This document shows, piece by piece, positions 766 to 47,829 of a stretch of 64,000 nt of DNA. This DNA is from Meghimatium bilineatum (taxonomy: Eukaryota; Mollusca; Gastropoda; Stylommatophora; Philomycidae), in contig CM067309.1 of NCBI GenBank assembly GCA_034231615.1, positions 37,413,750 through 37,477,749 of the forward strand, read 5' to 3'. Each line of letters begins with the position of its first letter. Position 1 is the stretch's first letter. Position numbers and translations under genes: made by a program. The notes below the pieces were generated by a model. That model did no database searches. It had not been told where the DNA came from and saw only the letters and a list, made by a program, of their open reading frames with translations.

Positions 766-962
766 GTATTACAGAAGCTGTGAGTGACACTCCTGTTGGC
801 ACGAAGTGCTGTGCTTGGATGACTGTTGAGCTTGAGGGCAATGCGAAGACCACTATTTACTGGCAGATTTGCCCAGCACATGATCCGAGTGAACCAACCA
901 TCAAGAAGATAGATGTCATCTTTGCTGCCCAGATGGCAAAAGCTAATGACTTCTATCAGAAG
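766..962 (+). CDS. GH63 glucosidase exon 1 of window
   Basis: The acceptor TTTTCTAG ends at 765; another AG at 773-774 is in the same phase, so a 9-nt alternative is possible. The donor is AAG|GTTAGT. The exon begins with 2 nt of a split codon and ends in phase 0. It encodes GTKCCAWMTVELEG...VIFAAQMAKANDFYQK, the end of the N-terminal beta-sandwich and linker. It aligns to the family segment ending '..FDAVFAARRAEADEFY'. Confidence 0.85.
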
Positions 963-3900: not shown

Positions 3901-6900
3901 TGAATGTGACAGGCTTTTATCTTTCCTCAGAGCTGCTGAAAATGTATGATGAGTCATACTTTAAGACTCCGTTTGGAAAGAAGAAACTTGGATGGAACCA
4001 TTTAACTTGTCATGACATCTTGATTATGCCTGATAAATGGGAGTTTCCTTGGGTAAGACCACATCTTTTTACCAAATTTTGAATGAGTGGAACTCGTTGA
4101 CTGTAAGATCAGAATCTGTTTGTCATAGTTTCAATGGGGAGATGGCTTGCTAACATTAAGATTAAAATCAGTTTGTCATAGTTTCAATGGTGGGAGATGG
4201 CTTGCCAACATTAAGATTAAAATCAATGGGAGATGGCTTGCCAACATTAAGATTAAAATCAATGGGAGATGGCTTGCCAATATTAAGATGAAAATCAATG
4301 GGAGATGGCTTGCCAGCATTAATATTAAAATCATTTTGTCATAGTTTCAATGGTGGGAGATGGCTTGCCAACATTAAGATTAAAATCAGTTTGTCAGTGG
4401 GTGATAGATTGCTGAAAGTAGGAGATTTCTTTCTTCTTTTTCTTCCTCGCTATCAAACTCCTGCAGATGAAAAGGATGTAGCCAGGAGAATGTAATGTGT
4501 TTTGTGTCATGGTTTACAGCTTGGCTGCGATATCTACACATTTTTGCATGAGACATTTAACTTCAGCATGGTTTCTGTGATCGTTGACCCTGTATGCGAT
4601 GGGACAGCCAATTCCACACCATAACCTCCTTAGTTTCCTCTTACAACATGCACAGAAAGTAAACATTGTTGCTGTTCTTTGCTCCCCTTTTGGACCTCGG
4701 TGCACCAGGGATAACAGTAGAATTTGAAAACATTTTTCCAGAGTATAAGTGAGTAGAGATTGCTAATAGTAAAACTATTCTTTTATATTTACATGTAGGT
4801 CCTAGGTCCTTGTAGTACTGATGCGTAATGATACATACGAGTGTTAATTAAATGTTTTTGGTGCTCAAGGAATTTACATAATTTGTGTGGTGTGTGTTGT
4901 TGTCATATTTGTGGTGGCTTCAGAGTAAACACGTTGAAAATCATGACTAAAAATACACCTTTTCTTAGGGATTTCGGATTAGCCGAATTAGAAAACTTGT
5001 TGACTCACATTACAAGACAAATAGATGCTAGCTGAATGGACCTGGTTCAAATTCCATCTGCTGCCTTCTAATATTTTCATAATATTACAGTGCTTCTGTT
5101 TAAACTTTCCACAGTTTGCAGCTTGGGATCTGGCATTTCACAGTGTCCAGTATGCCAGGATTGATATGCCTTTAGCCAAGGAGCAAATCTTACTGCTCAT
5201 GTCCGACAGATATATGCATCCTAATGGTCAGGTGTGTGTGTGTATATATATATATATATATTGTCATTTTATGTGAAACAGTTCATTATATATTCAAATT
5301 AATAACATTTATGGGTCCTTCTCCACTCTGACGACAGCGAGATGTCATTTTTGGGAACGTCCTGTAATGTAGGTCAGAATATAATGTAAAAAAAACCATT
5401 TGTCTAGTGGGTGTGTTACTTGGAATATTGACTTGATTCGTTGTTTAAGTAGGTGTGCATAGTTGTTGGTGTTTAAACACAAATGTCAAAAGTTAAGTAT
5501 ATGCTAAGTATATGCTAAGTATATGTTAAGTATATGTTAAGTATATGTTAAGTATATGTTAAGTATATGTTAAGTATATGTTAAGTATATGTTAAGTATA
5601 TGTTAAGTATATGTTAAGTATATGTTAAGTATATGTTAAGTATATGTTAAGTATATGTTAAGTATATGCTAAGTATAGTTGTTAAGTTCAGTTGTTACGT
5701 TTTAGTTGTATAGTTAAGTAATGTTAACTATATCGTTGTTGGTTTTTAAGTATAGTTGTTGGTGTTCTTCTTCATTCGTTCTCAAACTCCTGCAGATTAG
5801 CAGGAAGTAGTCAGGAGAACGGAAATCGTTGTGCCATGGTTTACAACATTGCTGCGATATCTGCGCCTTTCGTCCTGACACATCCGACTTCAGCATGGCT
5901 TTGGGTCACTGACTCTATATGGGATGGGACAGCCAACTCCATCCCATAACCTCCTTAGTCGCCTTTTACGACATGTGTGGAAGGTAAACAGTGTTGCTAT
6001 TCTTTGCTCCCCTTTTGGGCCCGGCAACACATGTGCGTTTGTTGGTGTTAAATCACAAATGTCAATTGTAGTAGGTAAAGTTAAGTATATGTTAAGTATA
6101 GTTGTTAAGTTCAGTTAAGTTTTAGTTGTTAAGTATAGTTAAGTAATGTTAAGTATAGTTGTTTAGTTAAGTAATGTTTAGTATAGTTGTTGGTGTTAAA
6201 TCACAAATGTCAAATGTAGTAGGTATTTAGGTTAAGGAATCTCTTCAAGGGTGAGGGTTCTTTTTGGGTATGTTTTTGGATAGATTTATTAGTGGTTAAT
6301 ACTAGATTTCACGAGATCCAACGATGACACAAAAATTCTAAATGTTACATTATTAAAAGTCAACAATTTTACATATTTAGGCACCAATCCAGCACTGGAT
6401 GGAGACACATCAAAAGAAATTTTACACTGTATTGCCCTGGCAATGAGTGCTTTCAATAAACTACGTAACATCTGGACGTCAAACACACTAAGAAACACCA
6501 CAAAATTCAGGTTGTTTAACTGCAACATTATCCCAATTCTATCATATTGTTGCGAAAGTTGGAAAGCCACAAAAGCCACAGATAAGAGACTAAACATCTT
6601 TGAAAACAAATGCCTACGTACCATTCTGAACGTTAAGTGGAGTGACTTTAAATCTAACACTACTATAAGAGAGGAAAGCAAGCAAACCTATATATCTTCC
6701 TTCATTAGACAAAGGCATTGAACTTACACCGGCCATGTTCTCAGAATGAACAGCCTAAGAATTCCCCATCAGACACTATATTGGGTGCCACCTGGAGTAA
6801 GAAGAAGAGGGAGACCAGAGAATCTCTACGAAGAACCATTAATAGAGAAGGCATGTAAATGAACCTAAACAACACCCAAGAACAGAAGACCTGGCAACAC

Positions 6901-9900
6901 AAAGACAGAAATGGAAAGCTATGGTTTTTGCCCTATGCCCCATTATGGCCCTGGAGGAACATAACATAACAATACTAGGCTGTATTAGTTGTGGAATAAG
7001 GTGCCAACAGATCGAGGAGGTTGGAAGACGCTATAGATATCATCCTCTTGTAATGACATAGCTGTGCTATTGGTGATGCATGATGGTGTCTCTTGCAGGT
7101 ACCAGGTTGTGAGTTTGATCTAGGAGACCCCAATCCTCCAATCATTTGCTGGGCCGTGTGGAAACTGTACAAGCATGAAGGTGTTCGTGACCTAGCTTTC
7201 CTGAAGACTTGTTTTAATCGGCTAATCTTTTGCTTTCAGTGGTAAGAATATAGAAATGATATATTTGTTAATGGCAGTGGTGAGAAGATAGAATTAATAT
7301 ATTTGTTAATGGCAGTGGTGAGAAGATAGAATTAATATATTTGTTAATGGCAGTGGTGAGAAGATAGAAATGATATGATTTATTTGTTAATTTCAATGGC
7401 GAAAAGCTTTAATTGATAATTAACTTTTTGTTAGCAATAACTGGCCAGAGTATGGTTGCAATATCTAGCTACAGTGATGTTAGCAATATCTGGCTACAGT
7501 GTGATTAGCAATATCTAGCTACAGTGATGTTAGCAATATATGGCTACAGTCCCTTTAGCAATATCTGGCTTCAGCGTTATTAGCAATATATGGCTACACA
7601 GTCATTATCAATATATTACTACAGTGCCTTTATGAATATATGACTACAGAGCCATTAGCAATATATGGCTACAGTGTCATTAGCAATATATGGCTACTGT
7701 TCAGTTAGCAATATCTTGCTACAGTTCCGTTACCAATATCTGGGTACTGTGCCGTTTTCAATATATGGCCACGTTGTCGTTAGAAATATATGACTACAAT
7801 GCTGTTAGCCATACAGTGCAGTTAGAGATAACTGAAGATCAGATATTTTTGTAATGTCACATATTTTGTAAGCTTTTAATAATAAGTGTAGAAATCAACT
7901 AAAGCCATATTCAGCAAATAAGTGTATTTATTTTATATTTTTTGTCGCATTTAGGGGATCATAGAAAAAATAGAGAAACTAAAGAAAAAAAGAGGAAGAC
8001 CAAGAAAGACTCTTTGCAAAACAACCAAAGAAGATATGACTATGGGTTCTGCTGAAGACGGATTTTTCGGGCCATTAGCGCAATTAAAACGGCGACACAA
8101 CGCATTTCCATTCTCTGGACGACATCCTGCTGGAAATCTAGTTGGACCATGGTCCTGCTACAAGGGAGATCCAGCGGGAGTTTGAGAATGAACGCTGAAG
8201 AAGAAGAAGAAGAATGACTATGGGTCACATTAACATACAAGAATTACACACGCTAGAATCACATCCCTTGAACTGGAGAGCTTTAAGTTTCAGCACTATG
8301 CACTGTATTTTGTGCTAAAGGAACATAGATAGATAGACATGCAGGTATAGATATGTAGGTAAATAGATTGATGGATAGGCTGGCAGGTAGGTAGGTAAAT
8401 ATAGAGATAGATAGATGAGATCAGATTATATAGATAGATAGATTAGATATAGATCAGATTAGATAGATAGATTGCGAACAAGTTGTCTGAAAATCTGCAA
8501 ATTTGAAAAATTTCGTTAAAAATCTGTCCAACATGATATTCTCGTGATGTAAACACAAAACAGGAATCCTGAACTGAAATACGCAAAGGTTATGGTTTTA
8601 AATTAACCCAAGGCAAAATCAAAACAGAATATTGAACTTAACGATACGTCAAAATAGTGACTCATGCTCTACCAATAAAGGCGACTGTAGTTTCAAATGG
8701 CTAAAATAGAGTCCACAAACCTAAATACCTGCTAGAATTGACATTTGTGATTTCACACCAATGACCATGCACACCTACCTAATAACAAATAAAATCAACG
8801 CACCAAATAACACACCAAATAGCCTGATGGCTGTACACTATAGAAAATCCTATTTATATTATATTCTATGACCTACATTATAGAACTTTTCCAAAATAAT
8901 CTCATATTGTTTACTTCCGCTGTTTTCAGAGTAGGTAGAACCTATGTTTCTTTACAGTATTTCTTCATTGTTCGTTCTCAAACTCCTGTTGGTTAGCACA
9001 GCCGAAGACGGATGTGTCAGGCCATTGGTGCAAATAAAACGGCGACACAACCGCATTTCCATTCTCTGGACTACATCCTGCTGGAAATATAGTAGGACCA
9101 TTGTCCTGTTAGATCCAGTGGGAGTTTGAGAATGAACGCAGAAGAAGAAGTTGGTTAACAAGATATTATTTGGAGAATGGAATATATTGTGTAGTAGTTA
9201 ACAAATTAGGTTAATCGTTAAAATCAAATGTTACTAAACCATATGGCCAACAAAATAATGCAATGTAAAATCACTTGTATATGTATATTAATGTAACATC
9301 CAAGGTGGCACAAGAAGGACCCCAAGTCTTTGTTTATCTATGGTAATGGGTTCATGGGACTGGATAACATCAGCGTGTTTGACCGATCCAACCTACCTTC
9401 TGGCGTCACCTCTTTGAAACAGGTAAATATTGTATAAAGCTGCCTAAAACACCTTGTCTCTTCAATTTTGTTATTATTTTCACCTGTTTTCATTATCTTC
9501 TGATCTCAAAACATTATATACCTGTTTTCAACTTTTTTTTTTTTAACCCACTCAATCTCTGATAGCCTGCAAGCGTCCTGTATATATTCATTCCTGAATA
9601 AGCTGCTGACGTCTGCTTGACACAAGTAATTTAGGCTGATGTCCATTACTGGTTCCTTGCAAATAGACATGCTAAATTTAGCCCTGACATGATTACCGGT
9701 AATGATGGCTTCCAGTGTATTTTTCTGTATGTTTCTAACGGTTGCGGGTTATCGATAGGAGCTGTGGGTTATCAAATATGACCTTTAAATTTCATAAAAA
9801 TTTGGTAAGAATAGACCTACTTATAATTCAGATGAGGTTGATGGGCAATTTTTTTAATGGAATCTTAGAGAATGTGAATGAATCAGACGTTGAAGGGGAA

Positions 9901-24900: not shown

Positions 24901-27900
24901 AAGAAGAAGAAGAAGAAGCTGTCAGTTATGACGAGGAAATTGAGGAGCCGAGTTTTCTACAGATAGTCCTATGGATGACCTTGAAACTGTAAGTTCTTTG
25001 TGTGCGTTTGTCCACACTGTCCATGTTGGTTGTCCACAATATAACACTGACAAGCAAACAACACCTCTAAACCATATCTAGCATCCACTTATCTCTATTA
25101 TCTCCAAATTTGAAATCAATAAATAAAAACGTTATGTAAACAACAACAAACAAAAAACATCCAGAAAAACCACAAATCATAAAAATGGAAGCAGGGTTCC
25201 AGAGCAAGTTGCATAATTGTGTGCATGAGTTGTTACAGGTTAAAAATTGTTTGTGTGTTTAATAAGAGACGACCTTCTTATTAACTCCCTTGTAGCAATC
25301 GGGGCGCGGACTTCTAGTTTAGGGTGCAGAGAATAGGGTGACTATCTTCTTTCCAGGAGGTGACTAAAGAAAGTTATGGGGTGGGAGGGGGTGTGGAAAA
25401 ATCATTGTTATTACTTAAGTAGAGAGAGATGCAGGCTAGTGCACCTTTATCCTGTTGTGGAAGACTCCTAGGTGGCGGGGAATGCTATGTGTGCCATCAC
25501 TGCAGATGGGTTAGCAGATCTGATGGAAGAATGATGAACTTGTTGGCTCTACACATACTTAGGAGCACCAGGGAACATTTGCCATTTCTTTTTCATGAGA
25601 CATTCTTCTTTGAGGCAACTAGGAGTTTGTTCTTGAGAAATTCTTCATTGAGACAACTAGAAGCTTGTTCTCGAGACATTCTTCATTGAGGCAGCTAGAA
25701 GCTTGTTCACGAGCTGAACAGTGCTTTAGTTATGATTTCCAAATATCTTTTTCTCCAATCTATTTGCTTTTGATGCCACCCTTAAGCGCTGTACTACCCT
25801 CTCATTGTTACTCAATAGCTGTACTTCTCCAGAATTCATTGTACTCAATAGCTGTACTTCTCCAGAATTCATTGTACTCAATAGCTGTACTTCTCCACAA
25901 TTGTACTTATTATTCTCAATGTTTGTGGAGCTTGGGACATGACAGACCCGGCAGTTCAGATCAGATGCTGTTTTACTCTGCTGCGACACAGTTGTAGCTG
26001 TGGGGACAGAGAGGTTTCTTTCAGGGATCTTGTTTGTTTTGTGTGAACAAATTTACTTCCTTCTCAATCTACAGATTGAGTCCATAATGCGTTAGCCAGA
26101 CTACTTTGCATGAGCTTTGATGCAGTCTGTTTCCAGGGTGCACCACGAGGAGGTCTTTTTAGATCTTGATTATCTGCTAACCCTTGGTTCACATGAGAGC
26201 AATGCAGAGCTCTTTGCACCCCTTCCTTTTCTTCCTTCTTTCTCTCTTTTTCTCTGTACATGAAACTCTAGTTTCAAGTGATGATCCTTGGGAGTTTCCA
26301 CAAAAAATGTCACTTGTAAACAAGATGTCATGAACCGAATTCAAACTCGAGATCTCTTGGGTGCAAGGGAAATCACTATCGCAGAGAGTATGTGGCTCGA
26401 AAGAAATTGACAGATATAAAAAATAAAAGAAGAATCTCTTCTCATTCGCAGAAGAATAGAAATCACGAAGAATTCAATGGAACTAAGTGAAGTTACATGT
26501 TAAGAAAATGCAGTGCACAAGAAAAATGTAAAATTAGAGATTTAAAAAAAAATGGTTCAAAAGTCATAGAAGATTGACTTCACTGCACTCAGATTTCCCA
26601 TATGTACGCTGTCACTCTCAACAAAGCTGCACGCTGTGCCTGCCGAGAGTACCACTCATAGCACGTAACTCCGTAGCTTCAAGTGATAATCCCCAGAGAT
26701 CTAAAAAAAATTCACCTTGTAAACAAGATGACACGAGTTGCATTCGAGCCCATGACCTCTTGAGCAGCTTAAATAAGAATATTGCTATAGAAAATGATTA
26801 ATCTGAGAATGAATGATGAAGAAGAAATACAAATATTGTTATAGGAAATATTTTGCTCGATATAGCATTTATCCATGAAATAACAAAGCCATGTTATGGT
26901 CAAACTTAACGTCAACTTGTGTTATGTTTTCCATTTCCAGAAGTCAACGTTTCTCATGATTGTTCATGATTTGTGTAAACGTATCGTCAGCATATTCTTA
27001 CCAGATAGATATGGCGCTAGACCTGTACATGGTGAGTGTAACATAAAGTTCTTTCTGTTGACATACCTATCAGCCTCGTGAGATCCTGTATATGGTGAGT
27101 GTAACATCAAGTTCTTTCTGTTGACATACCTATCAGCCTCGTGAGATCCTGTATTTGGTGAGTGTAACATCAAGTTCTTTCTGTTGACATACCTATCAGC
27201 CTCGTGAGATCCTGTATATGGTGAGTGTAACATCAAGTTCTTTCTGTTGACATACCTATCAGCCTCGTGAGATCCTGTATATGGTGAGTGTAACATCAAG
27301 TTCTTTCTGTTGACATACCTATCAGTCTCATGAGATCCTTCACATCAGAACCAAACACTGCAATGTGTTGTCAGGATCTGAAAGAGAGCAAGAATAGGAG
27401 CGACACTGTTATCTGCCATGCATGTCATAAGAGGTGGCTAGGGAAGTTTGGGGAGGGGGGGGGTGAAGTTGGCTGTCCCATTTCACAGAGGGTAGAAGTG
27501 CTCCATAGGCCTTGCTGAAGTCGGATGTGTCAGGTCGAAAGGCGCAGATTTCACAGCTGCGCCATAAAACATTACACAGAGCATTCCATTCTCTGGACTA
27601 CATCCTACAAATCTACAGGAGTTTGAGAACGAACACTAATCCATTTGTTCATAAACTCTCATCTCAAATCAATAACTATTGTTTATATTAGTTCATAAAC
27701 TCTCATCTCAAATCAATAACTATTGTTTATATTGATTGATTTGCTATTGTCTATGCTAATACAGTTCAATCCGGCTACTCTGGACACGAGTATAATAAAT
27801 CTCCCTATTTAACAACACTTTTCGAAATCCCCAATTATTTTTATTGTTTATTCTGTATATCCCTTACGGCCTTAGATTAAATTTACACAATATCCTCCGT

Positions 27901-30900
27901 GGGCCTGGATTCCTTTTTTGACAATGTGCATTATTTGTGGTGAGTGTTTGGTAAACGCGATAACTTTTTTGTTTGTAAAGATATCAAAATAATTTGTGCG
28001 CGTGTAAATAAAGAAGTGAACAATGCATATAATTGTGGGTTTTCTTTGTTGTTGTATGTGTGATGTGATGGTTGTGAATGAGTTAAATTTGGGTGGGGGG
28101 GGGGGATCTCAAGAATCCATTAAAATAATTGTAAATATAATTTGTTGATGACCGTAATACTTGAGTAAATGTGTGGCAACACTGATAAAATCCTCCTAAA
28201 TATTTATTCCTGTTGTATATATGTTGTTTCATATCGAAACTAATATAATATGGAATGAAAAAACTAATAAAACATGAAGAAATCGCATACAATGTCCGTC
28301 TGTCCATCCAACACTAGGTCTAGACCAACATACAATGTAATTATTTTCCATGCCAACACGTGGCACCCCTGATACATATTTTGTTTGTTTTATTTGATGA
28401 ATAAGTGAACATTCTTATAATATAACAACACACAAACAAAAATAGCAACTAAAACATGTAGATATTTCCACGACTCCGCCAAAGACGGATGTGTTGGGCC
28501 ATTGTCGCAAATAAAACGACAACAACACATTTCCATTCTCTGGACTACATCTTGCTGGAAATCTAGTAGGACCATTGTCCTGCTACAAGAGAGATCCAGC
28601 GGGAGTTTGAGAATGAACACTAAGAAGAACTTTCCACGATGATAACATGCCACGCGGTACTAGTATACTACATTTGATAGTAAAATATGGCGTTGAAACA
28701 AAATAGACAAAGTTGTTCCAAAAATTCATTGCCAAAAGCAGCCGGCTTTCTCCTTGTTAAAATCGTAATGTGTAAAGGAATTTGACCTTTAGGCTGTGAC
28801 GTATTTCTAACTTTGTGTTGCAGGAATTCTACATCATATGAGCTTAGCTTCCTGTGATTCCGTACTGATGAATCGGGGCATAGTAACGACGGAGGTGATT
28901 GGAGACCCCTACGGCCCTGGTTACATAATGCCGTCTGCTACTATAGACACCCATAGAGCCCGTACGAATATAGCGGATAGTAAATTTCTGCTATTATATC
29001 AATATTTCATATTTCCGGACTAATTTGTTCTAATGGGATTTGACTGTGTATTTCCTAATGTTTATTAACAATACAGGTCAGCAGAAAAGGTATGCTAAGG
29101 ACACAGACTGGGGTCACTTGGTACTTTTCTATGAGTATTTTAATGCTGAAACAGGAGAAGGTTGTGGTGCCAGGTAGGTGCCATATTGTTTGTATGCTGA
29201 CATCAAATATTTTATGCATGTATTGGTTGTAGTTGTATTGATCCCAAGGAACTAAGAGTTGTTAGTTCTTATTTCCTATGTGCTATCGGGTAGTTTCTCC
29301 AGAAATTTATTTCATGGCTGACGGAGCGGCATACAATTCTTTTAGAAGCCTCCTACTCATAGAGGGTAAATTCTAAGGGTTTTGTTGTACTTCTGTACCA
29401 TGCAGAATTTGAATCATCTTCCCTGCCAAGCATCCCTTCCTGTTAGGTGTCCATAGTAACCCAGTTCTGGACAATGGTCACTGGTATAGGTGGATCTGCA
29501 AGCTAATGCATTCCCCACCATCCAATCATCATTAAGTGTCGTGCCGAATGGCGTTGGTGATCATATTTCTCTATGTACATCGATCTCTCATATATGTCAC
29601 CATCTCTGTTGATCAAATTGAAGTCAAATCGAAGCCGTTTAGTCAAACTGTCCAATATCTTTTCTCTGGGTCTTCCCCTTGATCTTTTCCCTTGTATCTT
29701 TCCTGTTGTCACTATATTCTCTTCTCATTATGTGTCCAATAAATGTTCTGTCTTTTTCTTATAATCAATAATGCATCTTTTCACATGCATCCTTCTAAGA
29801 CATTCTTCATTAGTAATCTTTGCTGTCCACGGAATGCGTAACATTCTTCGAATAAACCACATTTCTGCTGCCTCCAATGATTTTTTGTGATGTCTTATTT
29901 ATTCTCCATGCTTCACTGTGGACAGAGAGCTGTGGAGAGCCATGACCGCCTACGCCACCCGGCATGGCACCTGATGATGATGCTTCACTTCTATAGAGTA
30001 GCACTCCAATGGAGCTCTCCAATTATGTAGCGCTAACATGTTTGCCAGATACTTGGTTGTTCCAGGAAATTGTCTCAAACTCCTGCAGATTATCAGGATG
30101 TAGTCCAGAGATTGGAATGTGTTGTGTCATGGTTTATATCATTGCTGCGATATCTGCGCCTTTTGGTCTGACACATCCAACTTCAGCATGGCTTTGGGTC
30201 ACTGACCCTATATGGGATGGGACAGCCAACTCCATCCCATAACCTCCGTAGTCGCCTTTTATGACATGCGTGGAAGGTAAACAGTGTTGCTATTCTTTGC
30301 TCCCCTTTCAGGCCCCGGCAACACATGGGGGTTTTAGTATTATTTTATTCATTAGTTTTACCTTTAGTATTCTCTCTTCTGTAGAATCTTTGTGTCAGTG
30401 AACATTCACCCAGTTTCAGTAAAGTGTTGTTGGCATCGCCATGGTTCAAGTATCTTCCCTGTTGTCACGACACTCTCCAAGTAACACGTTATTGTTTATT
30501 TTCGCCATTTCTCTTAGATTTCTGCGCATAATCTTGGTGCGTTCATGTGCAGATTGTCCTGTAAAAGGTAAATCTCTCTGATCATAAGTTCGCATTTACA
30601 CCCCGAGATTTCGAGCTTTCACTATTTCTTCTCTTTGTCAGGTGGTGGTAGGTGCATGTCTTCTTCAGCTGTGTTGTGTCTGTATAGAAGGTGTTAGTAT
30701 CAACTTGCATTAAAAGTTGATTGTTTTATTATTATTTTAATCAGCTGTTTTAAACTAAAAAAAATTGAATGAATTGGATACATCAAGACGATTCCGAGTA
30801 TTTTTCCACGTCAAACTGCTATTTAACACTTTTTAATATTGTACGTCTATGTTCACTTATTAAAGGGAAACAGTACTGCAGTGAATCCCAGGTCACTGTG

Positions 30901-32380
30901 GCATACCTGGAAATTAAAAAGTTGATCTCCTGGCTAGGAAAGGGGGATCACTGGAACAAATAGGAAGTGATAATACGTACTATGAATGTAAGACCATGTT
31001 AAAAGCAGAATTTAAGAAAAAGTGGAAGTAGATGCACCCAACTGCAGAACCAAATGACCCCTACCATCAAATTTCACGCAAGGAACAAACCATCATCTTC
31101 AGACTACGAACTGGTCACAACATATTGAGAAGTCACATGTTCCGAAAGCTGAAGATTGGCGAGACAGACTTGTGCAACTGTGGACTGAGCCCAGAGACTG
31201 CAGAACACATTCTTTATGCCTGTCAACTCTACCAAGAAGAGAGGGAGAAAATATGGCCTACTGAGACGGCATTGCTTCCAGACTTGAGGGGTTCCATGGA
31301 TGACCTGAAGCGAATCACACAATTCATTGAAGCTATTGGTGCTGTAATCTGATATCTGACTGAAGAACAATGAAGACTTATTAAAGTTTCAGTCAACTGA
31401 TGTATTACTTATAAATACCCTTGTTATAAAAGTTGATTGTGATAGTTTGGTACAATGGAATCCCCCTATAGCGCATCCTTTTATAACATATTTCCCTATA
31501 TAATAACACTTTTCCAAATTCTCAATTATATTTATCTGTTATTGTTTGTGCTGTGTATATAACGAATTTCTGTTATTACATACATATTTCATCTGTGCGG
31601 ACCAAGTTGTTATAATGAGATTCTGCTGTTTCATCTGTGCGGACCAAGTTGTTATAATGAGATTCTGCTGTTTCATCTGTGCGGACCAAGTTGTTATAAT
31701 GAGATTCTGCTGTTTCATCTGTGCGGACCAAGTTGTTATAATGAGATTCTGCTGTTTCATCTGTGCGGACCAAGTTGTTATAATGAGATTCTGCTGTTTC
31801 ATCTGTGCGGACCAAGTTGTTATAATGAGATTCTGCTGTATTCACTGAATGTTAGAGAATGAGAAGCCGGGCATATTTTTTTTAATCTGCTCTATTTTAA
31901 AGGGAGACAACTACAATAATTCTTGATCTTATAAATGTAATAGGGGGAGTTCTGTGCAGAACGTTGTCCTCATTGCCTACTGATTCCTATTTATACAAGC
32001 TGTCCAGCCTCTTCCAGTGCCTTATTTATAGACCCAAATCTTGGTCTGCATATTGTATTCAGTCCAAGAATCTGTCCCGCCACCAAAAGGAGGACAACTA
32101 CAGTAATTAATTCTCTATAAAGAAATTTGGCGTCAAAATAAGCAATATTTTGGGTAGAAATATGATATAATCTTTTTAGACATTGACAAGTATGTTATAA
32201 TTGAATAAAAATGTTCATGTCATTTTTTTCTTGCTAGACAAGTACCATAACTGTTGAGTTTAACACTTTAACAATAAATTTGTTTTTCATTTCAGTCACC
32301 AGACAGGATGGTCTGCCCTTGTGTTTGAATTTATACATAAACTCCACTCACTAAAGCGTCATGACCGATCTCAGATCTAA
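766..32380 (+). CDS. GH63-type glucosidase (YMR196W / MGH1-like), 3' 14 exons
   Basis: Partial gene; upstream exons are outside the window. Exons: 766-962, 2377-2488, 3931-4052, 5115-5231, 7099-7241, 9305-9422, 12783-12942, 16026-16213, 17395-17523, 20576-20705, 22785-22882, 26941-27031, 29077-29173, 32296-32380. Together they give 594 codons plus TAA, without internal stops. Seen: the ordered motifs [80 protein letters not shown] and HQTGW, which match from memory the (alpha/alpha)6-barrel glucosidases of the YMR196W/MGH1-like family in clan GH-G. By analogy with GH63 enzymes, Asp of WDLAF (5127-5129) is the likely general acid and Glu of FYEYF (29133-29135) the likely general base. Bacterial members are about 880-900 residues, so roughly 290 N-terminal residues are missing. 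Expected role: hydrolysis of an alpha-glucoside or short glycan; substrate unknown. No C-terminal membrane segment is seen. The exon 8/9 join is the weakest: the linker there is about 10 residues shorter than in bacterial relatives. Confidence 0.9.
1150..1500 (-). mobile_element. LINE RNase H C-terminal fragment
   Basis: The reverse complement encodes PGHEGVRGNERADSLAGNA and then KRDRADLIRAVID, the end of an RNase H domain. It cannot be the same copy as 1-180, because the two domain halves are in the wrong order on the minus strand. Confidence 0.7.
2377..2488 (+). CDS. GH63 glucosidase exon 2
   Basis: The acceptor is TTTTTTTCTAG|AAT and the donor AAAG|GTGAGT. The 112 nt start in phase 0 and end with one extra base. 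It encodes ICRQALAGLLWSKQLYIYN, the start of the alpha-helical barrel, matching the conserved 'RQAFAGLLWSKQFYHYDV' segment of the family. The following codon (GAG) is completed by exon 3. Confidence 0.88.
2640..2925 (+). mobile_element. SINE-like family B copy with duplicated tail
   Basis: It matches the family B copies at 20104 and 38127 over the GCAACTAAGGAG...GGACTACATCCTGC segment. The 3' tail (GACTACATCCTGCTAATYTG) occurs twice in succession, followed by a third partial copy. The 5' part is truncated. Confidence 0.75.
2935..3160 (-). mobile_element. tRNA-derived SINE
   Basis: The minus strand carries a tRNA-like head with a box-A-like GTGGCCGTACGGCTAGAACG and a box-B-like GGGTTCAATCC, followed by an unrelated body toward lower coordinates. 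It is flanked by family B tail sequence on both sides, so it is probably nested in one. Confidence 0.6.
3200..3900. other. Intron sequence, nothing recognised
   Basis: No conserved frame. I see no recognisable element between the SINE-like copies and exon 3; a 3579-3803 minus-strand open frame resembles nothing known to me. Confidence 0.4.
3931..4052 (+). CDS. GH63 glucosidase exon 3
   Basis: The acceptor is TTTCCTCAG and the donor TGG|GTAAGA. Its first 2 nt complete the GAG codon left by exon 2, and it ends in phase 0. It encodes [19 protein letters not shown], corresponding to the conserved 'YNADVISMPDKWEYPW' directly before the catalytic-acid strand. A 36-bp minisatellite starts within about 80 bp of the donor. 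Confidence 0.9.
4105..4398. repeat. 36-bp degenerate minisatellite
   Basis: Repeats of AATGGGAGATGGCTTGCCAA followed by CATTAAGATTAAAATC. It begins within about 80 bp of the exon 3 donor. Confidence 0.9.
4430..4706 (-). mobile_element. SINE-like family B copy
   Basis: A diverged minus-strand copy: tail ATCAAACTCCTGCAGATGAA at the low end and head TTTGCTCCCCTTTTGGACC at the high end. Confidence 0.8.
5115..5231 (+). CDS. GH63 glucosidase exon 4 (putative catalytic acid)
   Basis: The acceptor is CTTTCCACAG. The 39 codons are in phase 0 at both ends. It encodes FAAWDLAFH, then LAKEQILLLMSDRYMHPNGQ, the most diagnostic block of the family. The Asp in WDLAF is placed like the general acid of GH63 enzymes. 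The donor CAG|GTGTGT is the first GT of a (GT)n(AT)n microsatellite. Confidence 0.93.
5232..5262. repeat. (GT)n(AT)n microsatellite forming the exon 4 donor
   Basis: The GT/AT run begins exactly at the splice donor of exon 4. Confidence 0.9.
5497..5680. repeat. 11-bp minisatellite TAAGTATATGT, about 16 copies
   Basis: A nearly perfect run; weaker TTAAGTATAGTTG-type units continue to about 5760 and reappear at 6080-6190 after the SINE, so the SINE probably inserted into the array. Confidence 0.95.
5764..6030 (-). mobile_element. SINE-like family B copy
   Basis: Well preserved: GTTCTCAAACTCCTGCAGAT at the tail side, GGGATGGGACAGCCAACTCC in the middle, and TTTGCTCCCCTTTTGGGCCC at the head. Confidence 0.88.
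6295..6975 (+). mobile_element. LINE C-terminal fragment (RT end)
   Basis: It encodes FTYLGTNPALDGDTSKEI, then AFNKLRNIWTS, NIIPILSYCCESWKATK, NIFENKCLRTILNVKW and a late RRRGRPENLYEEPL. This is the usual C-terminal landscape of CR1/RTE-like LINEs: end of RT, then the 'YGCETW', 'RRIL' and 'RGRP' motifs. Frameshifts and stops break it. Confidence 0.82.
7099..7241 (+). CDS. GH63 glucosidase exon 5
   Basis: The acceptor is GTCTCTTGCAG and the donor CAGTG|GTAAGA; the exon ends in phase 2 and exon 6 supplies the last base of TGG. It encodes FDLGDPNPPIICWAVWKLYK and FNRLIFCFQW, matching the family's 'FGDVNPPVHAWA...FHKLLLNFTWW'. The donor region is copied about three more times by a 38-bp repeat downstream. 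In the exon frame the base right after TGG reads TAA, so using a decoy donor would add a stop. Confidence 0.92.
7236..7400. repeat. 38-bp repeat copying the exon 5 donor, about 4 units
   Basis: The first unit starts in exon 5 (CAGTGGTAAGAATATAG); later units carry GGCAGTGGTGAGAAGATAGA, so the donor is repeated three times. Confidence 0.92.
7445..7825. repeat. About 25-bp degenerate repeat (TTAGCAATATMTGGCTACAG)
   Basis: About 15 diverged units in the intron after exon 5. Confidence 0.88.
7950..8335 (+). mobile_element. LINE C-terminal fragment split by a SINE
   Basis: KKKRGRPRKTLCKTTKEDMT is followed after the SINE by MGHINIQELHTLESHPLNWR, giving the usual 'RGRP...DR.WR' end of CR1-like LINEs. 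The SINE A copy at 8048-8213 splits it. Confidence 0.7.
8048..8213 (+). mobile_element. SINE-like family A, complete, with TSD
   Basis: Head GAAGACGGATTTTTCGGGCC, tail TTTGAGAATGAACGC plus (GAA)n. A 12-bp target-site duplication ATGACTATGGGT lies at 8036-8047 and 8214-8225. Confidence 0.92.
8331..8475. repeat. GATA-rich microsatellite
   Basis: Imperfect runs of GATAGATAGATAG with GTAGGTAGGTA variants. Confidence 0.9.
8640..8935 (-). repeat. Dispersed repeat D, copy 2
   Basis: The reverse complement shares TATAATGTAGGTCATAGAAT and GTGAAATCACAAATGTCAAT with copy 1, without the inserted array and SINE. Confidence 0.6.
8999..9149 (+). mobile_element. SINE-like family A with TSD
   Basis: Head CAGCCGAAGACGGATGTGTC, tail plus GAAGAAGAAG. 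The target duplication GTTGGTTARCA is at 8988-8998 and 9150-9160. The left flank is the 3' tail of a minus-strand family B copy, so A is nested in B. Confidence 0.9.
9305..9422 (+). CDS. GH63 glucosidase exon 6
   Basis: The acceptor AG is at 9303-9304 with a weak pyrimidine tract; the donor is CAG|GTAAAT. The first base completes Trp, giving the WW pair of the family's 'TWWVNRKD'. It encodes [20 protein letters not shown], matching 'GGFLGLDNIGVFDRS'. It ends in phase 0. Confidence 0.9.
9547..10604 (+). mobile_element. TTAA-flanked (piggyBac-like) non-autonomous element, copy 1
   Basis: About 1.06 kb, similar to the reverse complement of 33937-34933. It starts after TTAA (9543-9546) with CCCACTCAATC and ends near GGGATTGAAAGACAG; the right TTAA has eroded. 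Common internal blocks include GGAGTAGTTAACAATTACAG and TCACAGATCAGTACCTCTTC-like text. No transposase frame is visible. Confidence 0.75.
10955..12490 (+). mobile_element. Pogo-like element, copy 1 (truncated, nested insertion)
   Basis: Similar to 27860-28950 over most of its length: AGATATCAAAATAATTT, CACTGATAAAATCCTCCTAA, CCATGCCAACACGTGGCACC, TAATGTGTAAAGGAATTTGA. The left end is missing. A LINE-derived insert occupies 11404-11988. Confidence 0.72.
11404..11988 (-). mobile_element. Internally deleted LINE with TSD
   Basis: A 12-bp duplication CCGTTCAACACT lies at 11392-11403 and 11989-12000; the related element at 28310 has the empty site. On the minus strand the 5' UTR-like part (to about 11730) joins directly to the C-terminal end: RSTWRSKIRKS, a long basic stretch, then a C..C / RTFTARIGLISHLRTH finger of CR1/Jockey type, and a CGAACAACAAC tail. 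Endonuclease and RT are absent. Confidence 0.85.
12500..12735. repeat. About 40-bp degenerate repeat (CTCACAACATTGT..CCTGTTT)
   Basis: Five or six diverged units ending just before exon 7. Related units occur at 9455-9540 and 10800-10960, so the array was apparently split by the inserted elements. Confidence 0.75.
12783..12942 (+). CDS. GH63 glucosidase exon 7
   Basis: The acceptor is CATACACAG and the donor GGAG|GTTGGT. It encodes ADCTGWMGLFALNMLQISIE and MAVKFLKHFLNIAKAIN, matching 'EQADGTSWMAMYCLNML' and 'ASKFFEHFVYIAHAMN'. It ends in phase 1; exon 8 completes a Gly codon. A 21-bp minisatellite begins about 50 bp past the donor. Confidence 0.9.
12990..13700. repeat. 21-bp minisatellite (GTGATATAAGCTGTCCTGTCT), about 33 units
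   Basis: Nearly perfect at the start and more degenerate toward 13700. The first part is open on the + strand because 21 is divisible by 3; no protein is inferred. Confidence 0.95.
14095..14345 (-). mobile_element. LINE RNase H end, with internal 2x duplication
   Basis: The minus strand encodes TWIYCPAHVGVC...ITDRPA twice in about 75-bp tandem units, the 'PGH.GV.GN..AD' end of RNase H, then RELIMDKLRAE. Confidence 0.68.
14390..15400. other. Intron sequence, nothing recognised
   Basis: AT-rich. I found no repeat unit, conserved frame or element end. Confidence 0.4.
15412..15835. repeat. Variable 19/35-bp repeat (ACTGCAGACC..ACAGATTACTGCGG)
   Basis: Mixture of AATAAAAACTGCAGACCCAA and CAGATTACTGCGGAYKAAAC units, rich in PstI-like CTGCAG. 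Confidence 0.9.
15858..16006. repeat. 30-bp repeat abutting the exon 8 acceptor, about 5 units
   Basis: Unit with TGATGATCTGTTGATGTATC followed by GATGATGTAA. It stops about 20 bp before the acceptor. Confidence 0.93.
16026..16213 (+). CDS. GH63 glucosidase exon 8 (3' end uncertain)
   Basis: The acceptor is TACTTCTGTAG. The first 2 nt complete Gly, then [20 protein letters not shown] and IRLRSWTGIVPLF follow, matching 'LWDEEDGFYYDVL' and 'RVRSMVGLIPLF'. I place the end at TTT|GTATGG because this leaves phase 0, which exon 9 needs. A second candidate donor, CCAG|GTTTTT (exon to 16223), would require exon 9 to start at 17408. The donor region is duplicated about 46 bp downstream. Confidence 0.8.
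16211..16305. repeat. 2x tandem duplication across the exon 8 donor
   Basis: TTTTGTATGGCCAGGTTTTT occurs at about 16211 and again about 46 bp later, each followed by similar TGTGTT..AGTC text. Confidence 0.85.
16446..17394. repeat. 30-bp minisatellite ending in the exon 9 acceptor, about 32 units
   Basis: Unit CATGTCTGTATTTCAGTATA followed by 10 variable bases. Subfamilies AACAGATCTC, AATATAGGCC and AACAAATATTAA occur in blocks. Every unit includes TGTATTTCAG, a good 3' splice site, and the last one is the real acceptor. Confidence 0.96.
17395..17523 (+). CDS. GH63 glucosidase exon 9
   Basis: The acceptor is the last unit of a 30-bp array (TGTATTCAG|GTT); the donor is AAG|GTCAGT. The 43 codons are in phase 0 at both ends. 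It encodes [16 protein letters not shown], matching '[16 protein letters not shown]'. The donor motif is copied three times within 80 bp; using the first copy would lengthen the exon by 15 nt in frame (VSESE). Confidence 0.88.
17520..17612. repeat. GGTCAGTGAGAG repeats starting at the exon 9 donor
   Basis: AAGGTCAGTGAGAG is followed by GAGGTCAGTGAGGG, GAGGTCAGTGAGAG and GATGTCAGTGAAGG. Confidence 0.85.
17636..17897 (+). mobile_element. SINE-like family B copy
   Basis: Head GGACCCAAAAGGGGAGCAAA, middle AGAGGTGGCTAAGGAGGTTT, tail AACTACATCCTGCTAATCTG and GAATACAGAAGAAGATG. Confidence 0.87.
17952..18272. repeat. 18-bp minisatellite with higher-order spacer
   Basis: GTAGTATTATCTTGTGTG units are grouped into blocks of 5, 4, 2 and 1, separated by TATGAAGATTCTTACTGTT. 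Confidence 0.95.
18280..18865. other. Intron sequence, nothing recognised
   Basis: Two minus-strand open frames (18392-18661, 18658-18861) have no recognisable motif. I treat them as non-coding. Confidence 0.35.
18870..19080. mobile_element. Foldback (hairpin) MITE-like element
   Basis: An imperfect palindrome: CAGCTGTCAACTTATTTTCC and AATAAAAACGTCAGTATTTA on the left recur inverted on the right (GACGTTTTTATT, GGAAAAAAAAGTTGACAACT). A 33-bp piece of the right end is duplicated at 19053-19117. Confidence 0.7.
19186..19353 (+). mobile_element. Pogo/Tigger-like MITE, TA TSD
   Basis: Bounded by TA; left end CACTCGGATCCTTCTATAGC, right end ATTCCACTG. The internal CAACACTTTTCAAAATCCCC is common to the other members. 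Confidence 0.78.
19370..20090. other. AT-rich intron sequence
   Basis: Nothing recognised except ATAATAATA-type microsatellite text and a possible ribozyme-like motif near 19966-20003 (see findings). Confidence 0.35.
20104..20382 (+). mobile_element. SINE-like family B, full length with TSD
   Basis: The best copy: 279 bp from CGCCTGTGGGTTGCGG to GAACACAGAAGAAGAAG. An 11-bp duplication AATACAGGACA lies at 20093-20103 and 20383-20393. It has no tRNA-like boxes. The body holds GGATGTGTCAGGCCGAAAG-like text and the tail GACTACATCCTGCTAATCTG. Confidence 0.93.
20576..20705 (+). CDS. GH63 glucosidase exon 10
   Basis: The acceptor is TTCTATTGTTAG and the donor TGCA|GTAAGT. It starts in phase 0 and ends with one base of a Met codon finished by exon 11. 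It encodes [17 protein letters not shown], the best-conserved block of the C-terminal half ('[18 protein letters not shown]'). Confidence 0.93.
20752..21165. repeat. 34-bp minisatellite, about 12 units
   Basis: Unit GTCTGATGTACTCATCAGTG plus TATCTGTTACTTAA; the array is essentially homogeneous. Confidence 0.96.
21185..21765. repeat. 34-bp minisatellite, second subfamily, about 16 units
   Basis: Unit GTCTGGGATATTTATCAGTA plus CATTTGTAACTTAA. It has the same period and layout as the preceding array, so both derive from one ancestor. Degenerate units trail to about 21940. Confidence 0.96.
22265..22755. repeat. 46-bp repeat (TTGGTGTCAGACTTGACTAC..)
   Basis: Diverged units up to about 22550 and then four nearly identical ones, ending about 30 bp before the exon 11 acceptor. 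The 22385-22480 piece interrupts it. Confidence 0.9.
22385..22480 (-). mobile_element. tRNA-SINE head fragment
   Basis: GACGGGAATTGAACCAGGTC and the following AGCAGCACCCAATCGCTTTG resemble the tRNA-like ends at 62650 and 63400. Confidence 0.55.
22785..22882 (+). CDS. GH63 glucosidase exon 11
   Basis: The acceptor is CATATCTGCAG and the donor GCA|GTAAGT. It encodes NYLLVESLEKYSDL, then FTVPLSVPYPTGTQA, matching 'VNYLLIEALQRF...FTVECPTGSG'. It ends in phase 0. The 31-unit 33-bp array starts 94 bp downstream. Confidence 0.9.
22976..24008. repeat. 33-bp minisatellite, 31 units
   Basis: Units start with CTTATTAAAAACATCA; two alleles follow, GGAGCTCCC and TGAAATCCC. The first unit starts at 22976 and a final partial one at 23999, which is 31 periods. 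Because 33 is divisible by 3, several frames on both strands are open (340 and 366 codons), but these are repeat artefacts. Confidence 0.97.
24406..24917 (+). mobile_element. 5'-truncated LINE with TSD
   Basis: A 13-bp duplication GCTGTCAGTTATG lies at 24393-24405 and 24918-24930. The insert starts inside the RNase H end (GIAGNERADQL), continues through IFRLRTGHNRLNSHMYTKF and the CNCG...TSEHILQEC zinc motif, and ends in (GAA)n. This is typical of I/Jockey-type LINE 3' ends. Confidence 0.92.
24931..25800. other. Intron sequence, little recognised
   Basis: The acidic codon run near 24285-24330 (MDDDSDEDDF) and sequence after the LINE (EEIEEPSF) may be one interrupted remnant, possibly of a transposase N-terminus; not provable here. 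Confidence 0.3.
25808..25900. repeat. 33-bp repeat, 3 units
   Basis: Unit CTCAATAGCTGTACTTCTCC plus AGAATTCATTGTA. Confidence 0.92.
26062..26225 (+). repeat. Dispersed repeat E, copy 1
   Basis: GCGTTAGCCAGACT..., GCAGTCTGTTTCCAGGGTGC and ATCTGYTAACCCTKGGTT are present here and at 61255-61445. Confidence 0.7.
26300..26780. repeat. Two related tRNA-like/low-copy repeat segments
   Basis: TTGTAAACAAGATG followed by an RGTTGCATTCGAGCCC-type segment occurs near 26312 and again near 26717, probably antisense tRNA-SINE heads. Confidence 0.4.
26941..27031 (+). CDS. GH63 glucosidase exon 12
   Basis: The acceptor is TTTTCCATTTCCAG and the donor CATG|GTGAGT. It encodes IVHDLCKRIVSIFLPDRYGA and RPVHG, matching 'LSRRLVRIFLRDAQGRRPVYGG'. 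It ends in phase 1. The exon end plus donor (CCTGTA.ATGGTGAGTG) is copied about four times by a 63-65-bp repeat in the intron. Confidence 0.9.
27022..27345. repeat. 63-65-bp repeat copying the exon 12 donor, about 5 units
   Basis: Each unit contains CCTGTATATGGTGAGTGTAA, a copy of the exon 12 end plus donor, followed by AGTTCTTTCTGTTGACATAC. Confidence 0.95.
27368..27645 (+). mobile_element. SINE-like family B copy
   Basis: GTGTTGTCAGGATCTGAAAG head, CATGTCATAAGAGGTGGCTA middle, and GGACTACATCCTACAAATCT tail. Confidence 0.82.
27762..29046 (+). mobile_element. Pogo/Tigger-like 1.3-kb element
   Basis: The left end follows TA with CAGTTCAATCC; the right end is GGGATTTGACTG, so the termini are inverted (CAGTTCAATCC / CAGTCAAATCC). 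Inside are AACAACACTTTTCGAAATCC (also present in the short MITEs) and the sequence common to 10955-12490. No transposase frame. A SINE A copy is nested at 28474-28630. The right end lies 30 bp before exon 13. Confidence 0.75.
28474..28630 (+). mobile_element. SINE-like family A with TSD
   Basis: Target duplication TTTCCACGA at 28465-28473 and 28631-28639. Head CCGCCAAAGACGGATGTGTT, tail TTTGAGAATGAACACTAAG. Confidence 0.9.
29077..29173 (+). CDS. GH63 glucosidase exon 13 (putative catalytic base)
   Basis: The acceptor is ACAATACAG and the donor CCAG|GTAGGT. It encodes [20 protein letters not shown], then GCGA, matching '[24 protein letters not shown]'. By position the Glu of FYEYF corresponds to the GH63 general base. 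It ends in phase 2. A 1.3-kb transposon-like element ends about 30 bp upstream. Confidence 0.92.
29500..30060 (-). mobile_element. RTE/CR1-type LINE 3' fragment
   Basis: The minus strand encodes EAAEMWFIRRMLRIPWTAK, TNEECLRRM, GKIQGKRSRGRPREKILDSL and a final IRHDT end with TAATGATGATT. Frameshifts break it, and it contains the nested 29918-29980 insertion. Confidence 0.8.
29918..29980 (+). mobile_element. 63-bp 5'-truncated LINE tail with TSD
   Basis: Encodes DRELWRAMTAYATRHGT and a stop, followed by GATGATGATG. A 9-bp duplication TGCTTCACT lies at 29909-29917 and 29981-29989. Confidence 0.85.
30070..30330 (-). mobile_element. SINE-like family B copy
   Basis: Well preserved: TCTCAAACTCCTGCAGATTA tail, GGGATGGGACAGCCAACTCC middle, CAGGCCCCGGCAACACATG head. 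Inserted in LINE-like sequence that continues to about 30640. Confidence 0.88.
30870..31354 (+). mobile_element. LINE RNase H end and zinc-motif fragment
   Basis: One frame with two stops: PGHCGIPGN, then VDLLARKGGS, IIFRLRTGHNILRSHMFRKL and CNCGLSPETAEHILYAC. Same family type as 24406-24917, but a more diverged copy. Confidence 0.85.
31453..31838 (+). mobile_element. Pogo-like MITE with amplified terminal repeat
   Basis: TA-bounded (31451-31452, 31839-31840); left end CAATGGAATCCCCCTATAGC, right end TTATAATGAGATTCTGCTG. The right-end segment is tandemly repeated in 42-bp units. Confidence 0.85.
31576..31848. repeat. 42-bp repeat made from a MITE end, 6-7 units
   Basis: Unit TTTCATCTGTGCGGACCAAG plus TTGTTATAATGAGATTCTGCTG; nearly perfect. 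Open on both strands since 42 is divisible by 3. Confidence 0.95.
31930..32060 (-). mobile_element. Possible LINE 3' fragment
   Basis: The minus strand reads INKALEEAGQL...RTTFC-like text, similar to 61600-61830. Very decayed. Confidence 0.4.
32296..32380 (+). CDS. GH63 glucosidase terminal exon
   Basis: The acceptor is TTTTTCATTTCAG. The first base completes Ser. It encodes HQTGWSALVFEFIHKLHSLK, then a short tail ending RSQI and TAA at 32378-32380. HQTGW is the conserved C-terminal motif of the family. The last codons, the stop and the start of the 3' UTR lie in a 2x tandem duplication of period 50 (about 32361-32460). Confidence 0.92.
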
Positions 32381-33040
32381 GATCTGTTGCCGTGGAGATT
32401 ATAGCACTTGATGAGAGATCTCAGATCTAGGATCTACTTTCTTGAAGATTACAGCACTTGCAAACCAAGAATTGTAGTATGGATACAGTAGTTCATCCAT
32501 GGCTATTTAAAAAAACACACAACTAGATGCCAAGAATTTTGGAATTGAAAATGTTCTTATTGAATTGATGCCAGCAAATTTTTCACATAATGTGAACATA
32601 TACACTATCATTTTATATTCTTTATACCTACTGACATAGTTGCTTGTTGTTTGTGTGTGAGGCTGTGAGGGTCAAGTAGAAAGGTCAACCAATCCTGTCT
32701 GTTGTACCTATTCTAGTCTGATAACAGTCAAAGCCTCTTCCTCTACTTCATTCAGTTATTCTTCCTCAACTCTGTTGGTAGAGGCCATGCAGAAAGAAGC
32801 TCAACCAAACTTGCCGACTGTTCATCCTGAGAGTTGCTACATCATACCATAGTTTCTTGTGCAAGGCTGTGATATCTGCACCTTTTAACCCCTACACTAT
32901 TTTCAACATTATTTTTGGGTTTAAGTTTGTCAATCCATTGCGCATAGAGACTTATCCTCTAATATCTACTGGCTTAGCCATACTGCAGCCATGAAGCTTC
33001 CTACCAGTAACCATTATAAGTGGAATAGGAGCATAGTCAG
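32381..33040 (+). other. Probable 3' UTR and flank
   Basis: It begins with the second copy of the 50-bp duplication. I see no clear AATAAA, no open frame and no recognised repeat, so the polyadenylation site cannot be placed. Confidence 0.4.
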
Positions 33041-47823: not shown

Positions 47824-47829
47824 GATAAG

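What the first reader, a model, noticed from the sequence alone, without database searches (positions are those of the whole stretch)
5115..32460. Minisatellites seeded at exon borders copy the splice sites of one gene
Seen: the exon 5, 9 and 12 donors are the first of three to five tandem copies (CAGTGGTRAGAA, GGTCAGTGAGAG, TATGGTGAGTGTAA). The exon 8 donor region is duplicated with a 46-bp period. The exon 4 donor opens a (GT)n(AT)n run. The exon 9 acceptor is the last of about 32 units that each carry TGTATTTCAG. The stop-codon region of exon 14 is duplicated with period 50. With 14 exons, seven such coincidences look non-random. Inference: replication slippage or repair may begin at exon ends, or the repeats may be tolerated or selected as decoy splice sites. 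Using decoys at exons 5 and 12 would add stops; the first decoy at exon 9 would add five codons in frame.
Basis: partly seen in the sequence, partly recalled or inferred. Interest (0 to 1): 0.85.

Follow-up and report, generated by a model that had tools for sequence, protein, structure and literature searches.

The report
Intron minisatellites touching splice sites
Several splice sites of one animal enzyme gene lie inside short repeated DNA blocks, most likely because repeats fill a quarter of the gene and a copied splice site does little harm; a mild preference for exon ends is possible but unproven.

Summary
The exon model holds. Fourteen exons read in one frame as an MGH1-like/GH63-type glycoside hydrolase, and 12 of 13 junctions align with bacterial homologues with gaps of at most five residues. 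Five junctions sit in or at tandem arrays whose units carry the splice site: donors of exons 5, 8, 9 and 12, and the acceptor of exon 9. Exon 4's (GT)n run is trivial, exon 8's donor is uncertain, and exon 14's stop-codon duplication is real but diverged (80% over 50 bp).

"Non-random" depends on the null. Junctions are no more repetitive than introns: 5 of 27 junction 20-mers have a near copy within 150 bp, against 24.2% of intronic 20-mers. If arrays are seeded as single units, donors exceed expectation (4 against 0.6, P about 0.002). That weakens to 4 against 1.26 (P 0.03) with transposon-like sequence excluded, and to P 0.13 without exon 8. Eight of 13 donors have an array within 100 bp downstream (2.1-3.6 expected), at a cut-off chosen after looking.

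Best reading: ordinary minisatellite births, some straddling donors, kept because the first copy still splices. Human IFI6 is a cited precedent. A donor-end birth bias stays open; the own-genome search did not complete.

The parts
766..962 (+). exon 1 of those in the window (gene appears to continue upstream)
   Evidence: open in frame, AG/GT borders; aligned to bacterial homologues
2377..2488 (+). exon 2
3931..4052 (+). exon 3; array starts 51 bp after the donor
5115..5231 (+). exon 4; donor CAG|gtgtgt abuts a GT then TA run (simple repeat, trivial)
7099..7241 (+). exon 5
7237..7381 (+). 38-bp minisatellite, 3.8 copies, first copy holds the exon 5 donor (5 exonic bases); decoy donors at +38, +76, +114 lead to stops
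9305..9422 (+). exon 6
12783..12942 (+). exon 7; array starts 52 bp after the donor
16026..16213 (+). exon 8; 3' end uncertain (weak donor, gap of about 10 residues against homologues)
16210..16312 (+). 49-bp duplication, 2.1 copies, containing the presumed exon 8 donor (4 exonic bases)
16454..17391 (+). 30-bp minisatellite; 32 units up to the exon, 26 with exact TGTATTTCAG; the last, TGTATTCAG, is the exon 9 acceptor
17395..17523 (+). exon 9
17522..17599 (+). degenerate 15-bp array (TRF score 65), first copy holds the exon 9 donor (2 exonic bases); decoy at +15 adds five codons in frame
20576..20705 (+). exon 10; array starts 62 bp after the donor
22785..22882 (+). exon 11; array starts 90 bp after the donor, degenerate copies reach to about +8 (p 0.007, one of 13 edges tested)
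26941..27031 (+). exon 12
27022..27339 (+). 63-bp minisatellite, 5 copies, first copy holds the exon 12 donor (10 exonic bases); four decoy donors, three identical to the real one at -3..+6 and one (copy 3) with one changed base; all four lead to a stop
29077..29173 (+). exon 13
32296..32380 (+). exon 14 with the TAA stop
32361..32460 (+). 50-bp duplication of the stop-codon region, 40 of 50 identical

Best explanation
This is a glycoside hydrolase gene in a minisatellite-rich animal genome. Tandem duplications of roughly 15-65 bp arise throughout the non-coding DNA and then expand. Those that fall inside coding sequence are removed by selection. A duplication that straddles a donor is nearly neutral: the first copy stays joined to the exon and splices as before, and the copied bit of exon becomes intron. 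A duplication of an acceptor is tolerated if the last copy is used. The result is arrays whose first (donor) or last (acceptor) unit is a working splice site and whose other units are look-alikes that are mostly ignored, or lead to messages with a premature stop if used. Shown: exon model, arrays, decoy motifs, reading-frame consequences, base-level lack of enrichment. Inferred: neutrality, removal by selection, which copy is spliced, and the order of events.
For: TRF arrays (score 50 or more) cover about 24% of the gene region. 24.2% of intronic 20-mers but 0.3% of exonic 20-mers have a near copy within 150 bp; for junction 20-mers it is 5 of 27 (P of 5 or more 0.82). With free placement of arrays, 6.1-6.8 junctions would be covered against 3-4 observed (d 0, three score cut-offs). 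Exonic overlap of the four donor arrays is 2-10 bp only, and exon flanks further in show no hidden likeness to the unit at exons 5, 8, 9 and 12 (p 0.40-0.89). In the exon 12 array copy 1 differs from the others by 2-4 bases and copies 2-5 from each other by 0-3; in the exon 5 array copy 1 differs by 4 from copies 2 and 3, which are identical. This is as expected of later amplification beside a constrained edge copy. [quoted passage not shown]
Against: Seed-type nulls still leave a donor excess: 4 of 13 against 0.6, P 0.001-0.003, or at score 100 or more 3 against 0.54-0.57, P 0.010-0.014; with transposon-like DNA excluded, 4 against 1.26, P 0.03. Placement with at most 10 coding bases gives P 0.0035 or below (d 0). 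Eight of 13 donors have an array within 100 bp downstream against 2.1-3.6 expected. The four donor overlaps are all short, under a fifth of the unit, whereas uniform straddling would give longer ones; selection may explain this but it was not tested. No RNA was available to show which copy is used.
Confidence: 0.68

Rival explanations
1. Array birth is biased to exon ends, above all to the first bases of introns: slippage, repair or transcription-linked breaks start there, so donors become the first unit of new minisatellites.
For: Donors straddled 4 of 13 against 0.6; 8 of 13 donors with an array within 100 bp against 2.1 expected (0 of 4000 trials reached it), 3.6 with transposon-like sequence excluded (P 0.006); degenerate copies of the intron 11 array reach to +8 of the exon 11 donor, p 0.007, one of 13 edges tested.
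Against: One gene, noticed because it looked odd; the 100-bp cut-off was chosen after looking, and at 50 bp with the mask the donor count is 4 against 2.54, P 0.23; without exon 8 the donor count gives P 0.025 unmasked and 0.13 masked; at score 100 or more with the mask 3 against 1.16, P 0.10; donor against acceptor is not significant (Fisher 0.16 and 0.24); the base-level rate at junctions is not above that of introns.
Confidence: 0.17
2. The decoy arrays are selected or used: repeated donors or acceptors tune splicing, giving variable or NMD-degraded messages, as reported for the human IFI6 minisatellite.
For: Decoy donors score as high as the real ones (exon 5 8.6 against 8.3, exon 9 8.5 against 8.5, exon 12 10.1 against 10.1, recalled weights). 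The exon 9 acceptor motif columns are 98.7% conserved across 31 aligned units against 82.8% for the other columns. The exon 9 decoy at +15 adds five codons in frame.
Against: Decoys at exons 5, 8 and 12 lead to stops. The conserved stretch of the exon 9 array runs well beyond the acceptor motif. Donor-like motifs are not frequent in other gene arrays (0 of 25 in sense reach the median real donor, 1 of 25 a score of 6). No RNA data.
Confidence: 0.1
3. Arrays persist near exon ends because introns grew by transposon insertion in their middles, leaving old, array-bearing intron sequence beside exons. This is compatible with the best explanation and would account for the remaining excess.
For: Excluding transposon-like sequence roughly doubles the expected counts (0.64 to 1.26 straddled donors, 2.1 to 3.6 donors with an array within 100 bp) and removes the significance of donors plus acceptors together at the junction itself (4 against 2.57, P 0.25).
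Against: The mask was generous (44% of the collapsed gene; 41 self-match intervals plus 9 intervals drawn by hand); a donor excess remains (P 0.03 at the junction, 0.006 within 100 bp).
Confidence: 0.35

Closest known systems
Human IFI6 (G1P3, 6-16) minisatellite with multiple splice donors (Turri et al. 1995; the paper was not seen, only its reference and one sentence citing it in PMC4526556)
   Same: A minisatellite whose repeat units act as splice donors; the cited sentence says two downstream repeat units serve as splice donor sites.
   Different: There, use of repeat units as donors is reported from messages; here there is no RNA, units are 15-63 bp, and several junctions of one gene are concerned, one of them an acceptor.
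Internal tandem repeats at exon-intron boundaries of human duplicated genes (PMC2812944, passages)
   Same: Minisatellites (on average 30-bp units) that cross exon-intron borders.
   Different: There the repeats change exons or make new introns in recent paralogues; here the encoded protein appears unchanged.
Intron gain by tandem genomic duplication of AGGT (PMC3443670, passages; PMC4974935, start of abstract)
   Same: Tandem duplication that copies splice-site sequence.
   Different: There the copied exon segment makes both ends of a new intron; here only one end of an existing intron is copied.
Intronic minisatellite of abalone TSSK1-like intron 3 (PMC6905558, passages)
   Same: A 27-bp minisatellite with variable copy number in an intron of a mollusc gene.
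   Different: No link with a splice site is described in the passages seen.

Membership tests
Minisatellite providing multiple splice donors (IFI6 type) | repeat unit contains a donor motif as good as the real one | tested here: met
   exons 5, 9, 12: decoys 8.6, 8.5, 10.1 against real 8.3, 8.5, 10.1 with recalled weights; exon 8 0.9 against 0.9, weak in both
Minisatellite providing multiple splice donors (IFI6 type) | array begins at the exon end | tested here: met
   arrays start 5, 4, 2 and 10 bases inside exons 5, 8, 9, 12
Minisatellite providing multiple splice donors (IFI6 type) | downstream units are used as donors in messages | not testable with these tools
   no RNA data at hand
Intron gain by tandem genomic duplication | donor and acceptor ends of the same intron are copies of one segment | tested here: not met
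   local alignment of the two ends (80 bp each) of all 13 introns: lowest P 0.066 (intron 11), introns 5, 8, 9, 12 P 0.36-0.93; units at the two ends of intron 8 differ, 49 and 30 bp. Old, diverged copies would be missed.
MGH1-like / GH63-type glycoside hydrolase (host gene) | matches the family profile above its cut-off | tested here: met
   PF22422 75 bits (cut-off 27), PF03200 47.9 bits (cut-off 22.4) for exons 4-14
glucosylglycerate hydrolase NF047898 (equivalog) | score above 550 bits | tested here: not met
   25.3 bits with exons 4-14 only

The most novel reading that the evidence does not exclude
In this lineage new minisatellites are born preferentially at the first bases of introns, with the donor as the first unit, so that exon ends act as seeding points for tandem arrays and each gene carries a changing set of decoy splice sites.
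Probability: 0.15. Interest if true: 0.6.

Novelty: new member of a known kind. Interest (0 to 1): 0.33.

Why it matters
If exon ends really seed tandem arrays, that would tie array birth to gene structure and give a source of splice variation that could be counted in any long-read assembly with RNA. As it stands the case is a well-mapped example of how a minisatellite-rich genome can copy splice sites without obvious harm to the encoded protein, and a caution that tests of such coincidences depend strongly on the null. It also warns that RNA mapping between repeated sequences can produce false introns (EASTR, PMC10632439, abstract).

Tried and rejected
Free placement and circular shift of whole arrays were set aside as fair nulls, since they allow arrays over coding sequence; they show only that junctions are not over-covered. 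Placement with at most 10 coding bases (expected 0.32-0.63 at d 0 over three score cut-offs, P 0.0035 or below, similar) was not taken as the main test because its cap was set after seeing the overlaps. Hidden extension of repeat likeness towards or into exons was looked for at 13 edges (8 donors, 5 acceptors); the lowest values were exon 11 donor side (p 0.007) and exon 7 acceptor side (p 0.023), weak for 13 tests. Other exon 8 donors (+19, +49, +77) all lead to stops; a missing small exon was looked for only by eye in the ORF list. A second gene in 34-64 kb as a test set: none recognised by eye in the list of ORFs of 50 residues or more, only pieces that look like transposon proteins; no family search was run on that half. 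A PDB sequence search gave one distant match, a mannosyl-oligosaccharide glucosidase (4j5t, E 0.00027). Species: not identified; a mollusc is my guess from recalled SINE-like sequence, no call supports it.

Literature: nine searches answered. In the listings and abstract starts that I saw there was no genome-wide test of minisatellite edges against exon ends; the library holds only open-licence papers. Turri et al. 1995 itself is not held. Passages on earthworm metallothionein introns with minisatellites (PMC12783039) and the yeast screen (PMC3618361) added nothing on splice sites beyond the Turri citation.

Full report
What the gene is. Exons 4-14 match the MGH1-like glycoside hydrolase domain and the GH63 C-terminal domain in Pfam. 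A scan of prokaryote genomes gave 80 candidate stretches, of which 11 loci encode a relative with 37-44% identity over nearly the whole of exons 4-14. In an alignment with all 11 (7 of 11 printed), 12 of 13 junctions pass with gaps of at most five residues. The exception is exon 8/9, where the animal protein is about 10 residues shorter. Exon 1 opens with an acceptor, so the N-terminal part probably lies outside the window.

What the arrays are. Tandem arrays (TRF score 50 or more) cover 35% of the window and 24% of the gene region. Five junctions lie in or at arrays whose units contain the junction motif. They are exon 5 donor (38 bp, 3.8 copies), exon 8 donor (49 bp, 2.1 copies), exon 9 acceptor (30 bp, 31.3 copies), exon 9 donor (15 bp, score 65) and exon 12 donor (63 bp, 5 copies). 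The donor arrays take in 5, 4, 2 and 10 bases of exon. The exon 9 acceptor array has 32 units up to the exon, 26 with exact TGTATTTCAG. Of 29 units listed with TGTATTTCAG, TGTATTTAAG or TGTATTCAG, 17 also have a TATAAAC- or TATTAAC-like sequence 24-25 bases upstream, a possible branch point by recall. Exon 4's GT run is a simple repeat, and exon 14's 50-bp duplication (40 of 50 identical) lies at the stop codon.

What decoys would do. Exon 5 decoys (+38, +76, +114) and the exon 12 unit decoys (+63, +126, +189, +252) bring stops, as does the exon 8 decoy at +49. The exon 9 decoy at +15 adds five codons in frame, and +57 would add nineteen; the other exon 9 GT sites listed bring stops. Small in-frame shifts without a stop are also possible at exon 4 (+6) and exon 12 (+6). 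By recalled donor weights the decoys equal the real sites, and the exon 8 donor is weak, 0.9 against a median of 8.3. On the sense strand 0 of the other 25 gene arrays carry a donor at or above that median (1 of 25 reaches a score of 6). Of 21 arrays outside the gene, 0 do in sense and 2 in antisense.

Is it more than chance? Base by base, no: 5 of 27 junction 20-mers have a 16-of-20 copy within 150 bp, against 24.2% of 29,561 intronic and 0.3% of 1,507 exonic 20-mers; the chance of 5 or more at the intronic rate is 0.82, and for donors alone (4 of 13) 0.39. Array by array, perhaps. If every array (30 at score 50 or more) is collapsed to one unit and dropped at random, donors are straddled 0.6 times on average against 4 observed, P 0.001-0.003, and all junctions 1.25 times against 4, P about 0.03. 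At score 100 or more it is 3 donors against 0.54-0.57, P 0.010-0.014, and for all junctions 3 against 1.1-1.2, P about 0.10. When transposon-like sequence (44% of the collapsed gene, partly masked by hand) is excluded, donors are 4 against 1.26 (P 0.03) and all junctions 4 against 2.57 (P 0.25); at score 100 or more, donors are 3 against 1.16, P 0.10. Without the doubtful exon 8 donor the donor count gives P 0.025 unmasked and 0.13 masked; without exons 8 and 9, 0.13 and 0.36.

A wider pattern. Eight of 13 donors have an array within 100 bp downstream: 2.1 expected, reached in 0 of 4000 trials; 3.6 with transposon-like sequence excluded, P 0.006. For acceptors it is 4 of 13 (2.1 and 3.7 expected). 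The cut-off was chosen after looking; at 50 bp with the mask the donor count is 4 against 2.54, P 0.23, and at 150 bp 8 against 4.4, P 0.02. The donor-acceptor difference is not significant (Fisher 0.24). Beside exon 11 the array's degenerate copies reach back almost to the donor (p 0.007, one of 13 edges tested). This is the part of the finding most worth a genome-wide test.

How it most likely works. Short tandem duplications arise everywhere in non-coding DNA. One that crosses a donor leaves a working donor on the exon, so it can persist and expand. In the exon 12 array copy 1 differs from the others by 2-4 bases while copies 2-5 differ from each other by 0-3; in the exon 5 array copy 1 differs by 4 from copies 2 and 3, which are identical. 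This is the pattern of an edge copy that took little part in later amplification. The two ends of the introns are not copies of each other (13 introns, lowest P 0.066), so intron gain by tandem duplication is not what is seen. Human IFI6 is cited as a case where such repeat units supply alternative donors (one sentence seen), and repeats at exon-intron borders are reported to change gene structure in human duplicated genes (passages). So the kind is known. What would be new is a bias of array birth towards exon ends, which one gene cannot prove.

Noticed in passing
40512-47827: A 7.3-kb minisatellite of 159 copies of a 46-bp unit, 98% alike, the highest-scoring array of the window.
   Followed up: no
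22916-24034: The 33-bp array of intron 11 is open for 349 residues on the plus strand and 372 on the minus strand and mixes two unit variants in irregular order.
   Followed up: no
16026-17523: The exon 8/9 joint lacks about 10 residues that the 7 printed bacterial homologues have; a missing small exon or a lineage deletion are both possible.
   Followed up: partly
766-32380: An animal-type gene with many introns whose prokaryote relatives found here are 37-44% identical over nearly the whole compared length; old ancestry or gene transfer was not examined.
   Followed up: no
10955-12495 and 27791-28970: Two diverged copies (76-87% identical in three pieces) of a repeated element of over 1 kb lie in introns 6 and 12 of the same gene.
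   Followed up: partly
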